Origin: Astrocystis sublimbata | Taxonomy: Eukaryota; Ascomycota; Sordariomycetes; Xylariales; Xylariaceae | NCBI GenBank assembly: GCA_022453515.1 | Contig: JAJNNY010000017.1 | Span: 640,792-704,791, forward strand | Direction of reading: 5' to 3' | DNA length: 64,000 nt | Shown here: one piece after another, positions 15,185 through 16,457 of the stretch | How positions within the stretch are numbered: position 1 is the stretch's first letter | Layout: every line of letters starts with the position of its first letter | Notes under the pieces: model-generated | What the model was told of the DNA's origin: nothing | The model's database searches: none | What the model saw: only the letters and a program-made list of their open reading frames with translations | Made by a program: the position numbers and the translations under genes

Positions 15185-16457
15185 ATGGTTCGGAAACTCA
15201 AGCATCACGAAGCTAAATTGGTAAAACTCCCTTTTCACCCAGGTCGATGGGCTGCAGGTCTGTCTAAGTAATGTTGCTAACAATTGCTTAGTATGCGCAC
15301 TTATTCTTCTCCTCGTCCTCGTGAAACGGCATCTCGAGGTCGTATAACTTAGGGTCTAACGTCTTCCAGGTTGAAGAAGACGGATTTTGTCACGTGGAAG
15401 CAGGATCATGATCATCGCGATGCCGCAGTCATTCGGAGATGTAGGTCACCCCAGCGTCTTTTGACGAATAGCGGCCACTACTTGTTCCAAGTGACTAACC
15501 TAATTGCAGATATGATTCAGGACAGAGGAGACTATCAGAAGTATGTCTAGTTTCCAAGCCACTTGGGCGCCTGGATTACTGACTTGGTGGATAGATACAA
15601 CAAGCTATGCGGAGTGAGCTGTCACGGCATTTCCCACCACACCTGTTCATTTCTCACCAGTTCCTAGTCATTGCGTCAGCTCGCCCACAAGCTCTCTCTC
15701 CTCCCCCCAGAGAGCGCCACACGTCAAAAGGTATAGCTCAGATTCCAGTCCCACCGGCAGCGAGAGCATGAGGGTCGAGATTCGGCACGCGAAGGCTGGC
15801 TCCTACATGTGACGCTATTCATAAAGCGACTGCGACTAATCTCTGGCTACGTAGCATGAGCGACTTCTGCTTGAGAAACTACATGATATGGGTATTCTCT
15901 CCTCGACCTCGAAGCTCTCCAATGTCGAGCACGGCGTCACTGTTTCGGCGATGGTAAGGCATCCTTCTCCAGCGCTTGACGCACTTGCTAACAGTAGCCA
16001 CCAGGCCAGGCGGCGACTCCCCGTAGTGATGACCCGCTTACGGATGGCGGAGACAGTGCAGGCGTGAGTGATCTCTTCCCGCCTTTTCTGCCATAAGCAG
16101 GAGCATGGGCGCATTGCTAACTTGCCCAGTGCAACAAAGATGATAGAGCAGGGGCATGTGCGCGTAGGAGTGGAGGTAAGCTTCGTCCCGACATTTTCCA
16201 GCCTCGCATTGTATATGGGAAATCATAGACACATAGTCTCAAGATGAGCCTGTTTGGCCGTGAAGCTCCCTACTATAGCTGCGCCCTCACTTTCGTCAAA
16301 AGACATTGGCTGATTTGAGTCATTGCAGTGCATCACAGATCCCGCCTTCTTCGTCACAAGAAACCAAGAGGATCTCGTTACATGGACGGCCGATAGCAAG
16401 ATCAAGCGTAATATCATGGTCTACCGCCAGAAACTCGACGACTTTGAGCTGCTATGA
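15185..16457 (+). CDS. IMP3: U3 snoRNP protein IMP3
   Basis: A nine-exon gene: 15185-15219, 15370-15440, 15510-15540, 15595-15613, 15668-15730, 15855-15953, 16005-16063, 16130-16175 and 16329-16457. The sum is 552 nt, or 183 residues, the size I recall for yeast Imp3. Conserved blocks are MVRKLKHHEAKLLKKTDF, HRDAAVIRRYMIQ, the S4 domain (LPVVMTRLRMAETVQAATKMIEQGHVRVG) and the C-terminal KIKRNIMVYRQKLDDFELL. The protein binds U3 snoRNA and pairs it with pre-rRNA in the SSU processome (nucleolus). Intron 1 cannot be removed in frame as one canonical intron: it needs two nested introns. One conserved position after VGVE reads Cys where I expect Val. It is divergent with RSM18. Confidence 0.96.
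15220..15369 (+). other. [D1,2]-type spliceosomal twin intron (stwintron) in IMP3
   Basis: The internal intron is 15221-15291 (71 nt, GTAAAA..TTAG, branch GCTAAC at 15276-15281). Removing it joins G15220 to TATGCG at 15292, creating a new canonical donor GTATGC. The external intron then runs from G15220 to 15369 (79 nt after internal removal), with branch CTAAC at 15356-15360 and acceptor CCAG. The resulting exon junction restores the KLLKK of IMP3 and the total frame. A single GT..AG intron cannot do this. The class is known in ascomycetes; this instance is inferred from sequence. Confidence 0.85.

What the first reader, a model, noticed from the sequence alone, without database searches (positions are those of the whole stretch)
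15220..15369. Spliceosomal twin intron ([D1,2] stwintron) in the IMP3 gene
A single GT..AG intron cannot join exon 1 to exon 2 in frame: the protein needs KL joined to LKK, which would require a GG..AG intron. Two nested canonical introns solve it exactly. The internal intron 15221-15291 (GTAAAA..TTAG, branch GCTAAC) splits the external donor between its first and second base. After its removal G15220 meets TATGCG, giving the donor GTATGC, and the external intron ends at 15369 with its own CTAAC branch. The full CDS then totals 552 nt, 183 codons. Stwintrons of this class are known in Ascomycota (established knowledge); whether this one in IMP3 has been described I cannot tell.
Basis: partly seen in the sequence, partly recalled or inferred. 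Interest (0 to 1): 0.78.

Follow-up and report, generated by a model that had tools for sequence, protein, structure and literature searches.

The report
Two-way twin intron in fungal IMP3
In a fungus of the Xylaria kind, the first intron of the ribosome-assembly gene IMP3 appears to be two ordinary introns that share a single base and must be cut out one after the other, an arrangement that gene-prediction software seems to misread in several close relatives.

Summary
15185-16457 is a single-copy IMP3 gene (9 exons, 552-nt CDS, 183 aa). Its first intervening sequence, 15220-15369, holds two canonical introns overlapping at G15291: 15221-15291 (GTAAAA..GCTAAC..TAG) and 15291-15369 (GTATGC..TCTAAC..CAG). 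Consecutive removal gives KLLKKTDF; Chaetomium, yeast (KLLKK) and human (KLLKQ) Imp3 match in spacing. None of 36 enumerated in-frame single introns does. Support: all 7 annotated models in the core Xylaria group break at KL^LKK, as does Anthostomella, against 124 of 131 exon-1-bearing homologues intact. One model labelled Xylariaceae outside that group (P0015) is intact. Two broken models force a rebuilt canonical external donor; a third does not. An uninterrupted 183-aa ORF on a 2.4-kb Logan contig, probably a transcript, reads KLLKK. The internal donor GTAAAA escapes the published motif search. New member of a known kind; no RNA or intermediate was seen.

The parts
15185..15219 (+). IMP3 exon 1 (coding), ends ..AAA TT
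15220..15369 (+). whole stwintron (150 nt), 5'-GGT..CAG, phase 2
15221..15291 (+). upstream canonical intron (71 nt), internal intron of the [D1,2] reading, GTAAAA..TAG
15276..15281 (+). branch-site motif GCTAAC of the upstream intron (branch A inferred at 15280)
   Evidence: motif rule from PMC9024468
15291..15369 (+). downstream canonical intron (79 nt) GTATGC..CAG; overlaps the upstream one at G15291; in the [D1,2] reading it is G15220 + 15292-15369
15355..15360 (+). branch-site motif TCTAAC of the downstream intron (branch A inferred at 15359)
   Evidence: motif rule from PMC9024468
15370..15440 (+). IMP3 exon 2; its first base G15370 permits the [A2,3] route
15441..16457 (+). rest of IMP3: introns 15441-15509, 15541-15594, 15614-15667, 15731-15854, 15954-16004, 16064-16129, 16176-16328 (all GT-AG) and the exons between; stop codon ends at 16457

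Best explanation
15220-15369 is a spliceosomal twin intron (stwintron): two canonical U2-type introns overlapping by one base, G15291. Each has its own donor, branch site and acceptor, and they are excised one after the other. Route 1 ([D1,2]): 15221-15291 goes first, G15220 joins TATGC to make donor GTATGC, and the external intron ending at 15369 then goes. Route 2 ([A2,3]): 15291-15369 goes first, ..GCTTA joins G15370 to rebuild TAG, and the GTAAAA..TAG intron then goes. Both give the same mRNA, MVRKLKHHEAKLLKKTDF.. Every partly spliced form, and the distal mis-splice 15221-15369, meets an early stop. Shown: sequence elements, frame, product, and matching annotation failures in relatives. 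Inferred: that the spliceosome does this in this organism, and which route dominates (not determined).
For: (1) The product keeps KLLKK, as in solved Imp3 of Chaetomium thermophilum and yeast (human KLLKQ), same spacing; none of 36 in-frame single introns does. (2) Both introns have CTAAC branch motifs; the interval fits the published [D1,2] rules except for the internal donor; 16 of 20,000 shuffles do as well. (3) All 7 annotated models in the core group of the tree (P0002-P0006, P0011, P0014) and Anthostomella P0041 diverge at the L12/L13 boundary, while 124 of 131 exon-1-bearing proteins retrieved are intact there. In the 7 core models the other seven junctions show 6 errors in 49 by hand count, or 7 if a skipped exon counts twice (Fisher p 7e-6 and 1.5e-5). 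(4) X. longipes P0014 reads KL-YA.. and Anthostomella P0041 KL-YV..; any codons for these rebuild GTAYGC or GTAYGT, both listed donors; 1.6% of random codon pairs would. (5) P0001, 96% identical, is an uninterrupted 183-aa ORF with KLLKK on a 2,414-nt contig, probably a spliced mRNA. (6) One IMP3 copy was found in the genome, so it should be spliced correctly.
Against: No RNA reads and no splicing intermediate from this organism were seen. The internal donor GTAAAA lacks the usual G at position 5 (as does GTATAG at 15731 in the same gene). P0006 (KL-SHN-LKK) does not rebuild a listed donor and is unexplained. P0015, labelled Xylariaceae sp. FL0804 but outside the core group, is intact. Relatives' DNA could not be read, so the inference rests on faulty protein models, which also err at other junctions. 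That P0001 is a transcript is inferred only from its lack of introns. The self-symmetry reported for all 117 Hypoxylon stwintrons (PMC9024468 abstract) was not significant here by my cruder test (68 of 500 shuffles).
Confidence: 0.9

Rival explanations
1. A single canonical intron with a changed protein: donor 15221 with acceptor 15352 (insert GLTSSR), 15376 (KLKTDF) or 15379 (KLTDF).
For: All keep frame without stops. Published gene models of P0003, P0004 and P0005 show the 15379-type product (KL-TDF or KL-VDL).
Against: Each alters a segment kept in Chaetomium, yeast and human and in 124 of 131 exon-1-bearing homologues. AG 15376 and 15379 lie in exon AAG codons beyond a CAG that has its own TCTAAC; AG 15352 is preceded closely only by ATAAC. 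P0001 has KLLKK. The single-intron models of relatives disagree with each other.
Confidence: 0.05
2. One non-canonical GG-AG intron removed in a single step.
For: Same mature mRNA and protein as the stwintron (sequence).
Against: GG donors are not an established U2 class (recalled). It does not explain the internal branch site, acceptor and rebuilt donor, met together in 16 of 20,000 shuffles, nor the TAYG[C/T] forced in two relatives.
Confidence: 0.03
3. A sequencing or assembly error creates the frame conflict around one ordinary intron.
For: A one-base change would also remove the conflict; no reads were available to check.
Against: Models from several other genomes break at the same codon; the second branch site and second donor stay unexplained.
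Confidence: 0.02

Closest known systems
[D1,2] stwintrons of Hypoxylaceae and Xylariaceae (Fekete, Flipphi, Karaffa, Scazzocchio and co-workers; PMC9024468, PMC12403724)
   Same: GGT..AG intervening sequence, internal intron splitting the external donor between bases 1 and 2, seamless in frame; PMC9024468 states that automated annotation does not recognise them.
   Different: In IMP3, a gene name absent from the main texts I searched; internal donor GTAAAA is outside the 24 donors of the published search model A, which finds nothing in this window. No RNA evidence here, whereas they have it.
Two-way [D1,2]/[A2,3] stwintrons (Helminthosporium solani alternative oxidase; a multidrug efflux pump gene; as described in the Background of PMC5639578)
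   Same: Two introns overlapping at their terminal G, with a G opening the downstream exon, so two splicing orders give one mRNA.
   Different: Other gene; here only predicted, there reported by the authors as demonstrated (H. solani) or found (efflux pump).
Position-conserved Sordariomycetes bioDA [D2,3] stwintron (PMC5639578, abstract and Background)
   Same: A stwintron kept at one position across related fungi in a conserved gene.
   Different: Different split ([D2,3]) and gene; our conservation is inferred from protein models only.

Membership tests
[D1,2] stwintron | internal canonical intron splits the external donor between its bases 1 and 2 | tested here: met
   G15220 | 15221-15291 | TATGC
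[D1,2] stwintron | both introns have their own branch site and acceptor within published distances | tested here: met
   the expression of PMC9024468 with the internal donor relaxed matches
[D1,2] stwintron | internal donor among the 24 GTNNGN hexamers of search model A | tested here: not met
   GTAAAA; model A gives 0 hits in the window on either strand. This is a search setting, not the definition of the class: the authors report members with off-list elements
[D1,2] stwintron | seamless excision restores the conserved reading frame and protein | tested here: met
[D1,2] stwintron | splicing intermediate lacking only the internal intron | not testable with these tools
   no RNA reads available
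[D1,2] stwintron | same position in orthologues (hallmark of the unique, older kind) | tested here: inconclusive
   7 annotated relatives break just after KL and P0002 just before LKK; indirect, DNA not available; P0006 does not fit simply; P0015 intact
two-way [D1,2]/[A2,3] stwintron | G directly downstream of the 3' acceptor, identical mRNA by both orders | tested here: met
   G15370
sister (repeated) stwintrons | sequence-similar copies elsewhere in the genome | tested here: not met
   1 match, itself, in 42.6 Mb at E <= 10 (that search skips simple repeats and very common words)
sister (repeated) stwintrons | terminal symmetry / near-terminal inverted repeats | tested here: inconclusive
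   self reverse-complement score reached by 68 of 500 shuffles, best match not at the termini; a different method from the papers', and NTIRE-10 was not searched for
Imp3 (U3 snoRNP) | S4/S9 N-terminal and S4 domains, full-length match to solved Imp3 | tested here: met
   Pfam PF00163 and PF01479 above cut-offs; Chaetomium Imp3 E 7e-84 with a hand-read 180-aa query

The most novel reading that the evidence does not exclude
The IMP3 stwintron is old, predating the split of Anthostomella from the core Xylaria group. Being two-way [D1,2]/[A2,3], it would have left ordinary introns one base apart (phase 2 versus phase 0) in lineages where one of the overlapping introns was lost, making IMP3 a natural test of the proposed single-nucleotide intron shift. 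Splicing order would be biased by a hairpin that hides the inner branch site and acceptor.
Probability: 0.2. Interest if true: 0.55.

Novelty: new member of a known kind. Interest (0 to 1): 0.4.

Why it matters
It seems to sit in a conserved single-copy ribosome-assembly gene across a group of fungi and to have spoilt the public IMP3 models of that group, which shows how stwintrons can distort annotation of even highly conserved proteins. Its internal donor lies outside the published search model A, so counts made with that model alone would miss it. The two-way overlap gives a clean test of splicing order: a silent change at either of two leucine-codon bases would block one route and leave the other.

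Tried and rejected
Repeated-element origin: no second copy of the 150-nt stwintron was found in the genome. Symmetry and internal-versus-external similarity: not above shuffles (68 of 500 and 250 of 500). Structure: the whole stwintron folds little better than shuffles (z -1.07, 30 of 200 as good); a hand-picked stretch 15262-15296 around the internal branch site and acceptor has z -2.20 (5 of 200), post hoc and too weak to claim. Other stwintrons in the window: model A none; with a relaxed internal donor the hits are this locus, a nested variant of it (15242), and 50549-50760 on the minus strand, which I judged by eye to lie in non-coding sequence and dropped. A first Fisher test on eight models (p 7e-7) was circular, because they had been picked for being broken; it is replaced by the test on the seven annotated core-group models, though which rows entered the tree was also my choice. 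Relatives' DNA: viral contigs gave none; metagenome scans had a cap of zero; genome contigs holds bacteria and archaea only and was not scanned; supplementary tables could not be opened (cap zero). Literature: 'stwintron' (10 papers listed), 'spliceosomal twin intron' (8), IMP3 + Xylariaceae + intron (0). 'IMP3' occurs 0 times in the main text of the six stwintron papers searched; the other four of the ten listed were not opened, and it may be in supplements.

Full report
What is there. The stretch 15185-16457 (+) encodes Imp3: nine exons, 552 nt, 183 aa. Full-length matches to solved Imp3 include Chaetomium thermophilum (E 7e-84), yeast and human (run with a hand-read 180-aa version). The Pfam S4/S9 N-terminal and S4 domains are present. 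In the genome (42.6 Mb, 189 contigs, unnamed) five of the six hits are exons of this gene; the sixth is a weak 23%-identity match on another contig. The closest named homologues are mostly Xylaria, Nemania and Xylariaceae records, so the organism is very probably a member of the Xylariaceae.

The first intervening sequence. Exon 1 ends ..AAA TT at 15219 and exon 2 starts G TTG AAG AAG at 15370. The 150 nt between begin GGTAAAA and end TTCCAG. Inside are two complete canonical introns, 15221-15291 (GTAAAA, GCTAAC, TAG; 71 nt) and 15291-15369 (GTATGC, TCTAAC, CAG; 79 nt), sharing G15291. The other seven introns of the gene are plain GT-AG.

Alternatives enumerated. I listed single introns of at least 30 nt (GT/GC-AG, AT-AC) that keep frame without a stop from the ATG to the end of exon 2: 36, none giving KLLKK. 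All of them insert or delete residues in a segment that is KLLKK in Chaetomium and yeast and KLLKQ in human Imp3, with identical spacing.

Because exon 2 starts with G, removing 15291-15369 first rebuilds ..GCTTA+G15370 as an acceptor. A script removing the introns in both orders gave identical mRNAs. Retaining either or both introns, or the distal mis-splice 15221-15369 (MVRKLKHHEAKLVEEDGFCHVEAGS*), meets an early stop. This is the [D1,2]/[A2,3] arrangement of the literature (PMC5639578 Background, read; PMC9024468 passages).

Chance. PMC9024468 prints a search expression for [D1,2] stwintrons (Methods part 1 of 2). As printed (24 internal donors) it finds nothing in the window on either strand. 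With the internal donor relaxed it finds this locus, a nested variant of it, and one minus-strand hit at 50549-50760 in apparently non-coding sequence. With GGTAAAA and the final CAG fixed, 16 of 20,000 dinucleotide shuffles satisfy the remaining rules, and 107 of 20,000 with the external branch site and acceptor also kept.

Relatives. Two protein searches listed 162 distinct proteins (120 best of 2,109, and 120 best of 621). Of the 131 that contain exon 1, 124 have the KLLKK-type motif and 7 do not (my tally: 129 by pattern, less P0147, a false match, plus P0097, P0117 and P0118; 21 were also read in full). The seven are Xylaria sp. FL0043 and FL1777 (KL-TDF), Xylariaceae sp. FL1019 (KL-VDL), Xylariaceae sp. 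FL1272 (KL-SHN-LKK), Nemania sp. NC0429 (reads on into GTNAAY, then loses exon 2), X. longipes (KL-YAQPAFFDFA-LKK) and Anthostomella pinea (KL-YVEC..CW-LRK). An eighth, P0002, lacks exon 1 and diverges just before LKK. Against: P0015, labelled Xylariaceae sp. FL0804, is intact, and so are the two Daldinia models.

Control on annotation quality. These models also err elsewhere: in the seven core-group models I counted by eye, on the alignment, 6 errors among the 49 other junctions (7 if the skipped exon 4 of P0004 counts twice), against 7 of 7 at this one (Fisher p 7e-6 and 1.5e-5). An earlier version with eight models was circular and is dropped. [quoted passage not shown]

What the errors say about the DNA. 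The X. longipes and Anthostomella models appear to splice out the internal intron and read on into the external one: Y-A and Y-V force GTAYGC and GTAYGT as rebuilt donors, all on the published list, against 1.6% of random codon pairs. FL1272's S-H does not rebuild a listed donor and I leave it unexplained. P0001, 96% identical, is an uninterrupted 183-aa frame on a 2,414-nt Logan contig; since the gene has eight intervening sequences here, it is probably a spliced transcript, and it reads KLLKK. Its DNA could not be fetched.

Phylogeny. In a tree of 31 rows (the window plus 30 chosen of the 162, break region removed), the window, P0001 and the seven core broken models form one strongly supported group (100/99). 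Anthostomella falls elsewhere, with an intact row (95/86). The label needs three changes, two forced by starred branches; one of the three is P0001, which carries the intact motif as a putative transcript. So either the stwintron is older than the core group, or it arose twice, or some 'intact' models were corrected with RNA. This cannot be settled here.

What it is not. No second copy was found in the genome, and there is no significant similarity between the two halves or self-symmetry by my test, although PMC9024468 reports underlying symmetry in all 117 of its stwintrons (abstract). So it looks like the uniquely occurring, position-conserved kind; 68 of the 81 unique stwintrons of that study were present in all or most Hypoxylaceae assessed (section 3.3). 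For PMC12403724 I saw the abstract, passages and Results part 1 of 3.

Verdict. A well-supported prediction of a two-way [D1,2]/[A2,3] stwintron in IMP3, a new member of a known kind. Missing are RNA from the organism and relatives' DNA. The main texts of the six stwintron papers searched do not name IMP3, but their supplementary lists could not be opened, so it may already be tabulated.

Noticed in passing
protein P0002: The protein labelled Lasiodiplodia mahajangana (Botryosphaeriales in NCBI taxonomy) falls inside the core Xylaria group; the genome's label looks wrong, or it is contaminated.
   Followed up: partly
15264-15291: Imperfect hairpin CTAAGTAATGTT/AACAATTGCTTAG encloses the inner branch site and acceptor; z -2.2 on a hand-picked stretch, z about -1 for the whole internal intron.
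   Followed up: partly
15731-15854: Another IMP3 intron with A at donor position 5 (GTATAG), so G5 is not strict in this gene.
   Followed up: no
16935-20135: Downstream of IMP3, a 1,066-codon uninterrupted frame resembling an SNF2-type helicase (recalled motifs, not searched).
   Followed up: no
44833-47304: Long uninterrupted frame (823 codons) with Ser/Thr-rich repeats and a hydrophobic stretch; looks like a cell-surface protein (not searched).
   Followed up: no
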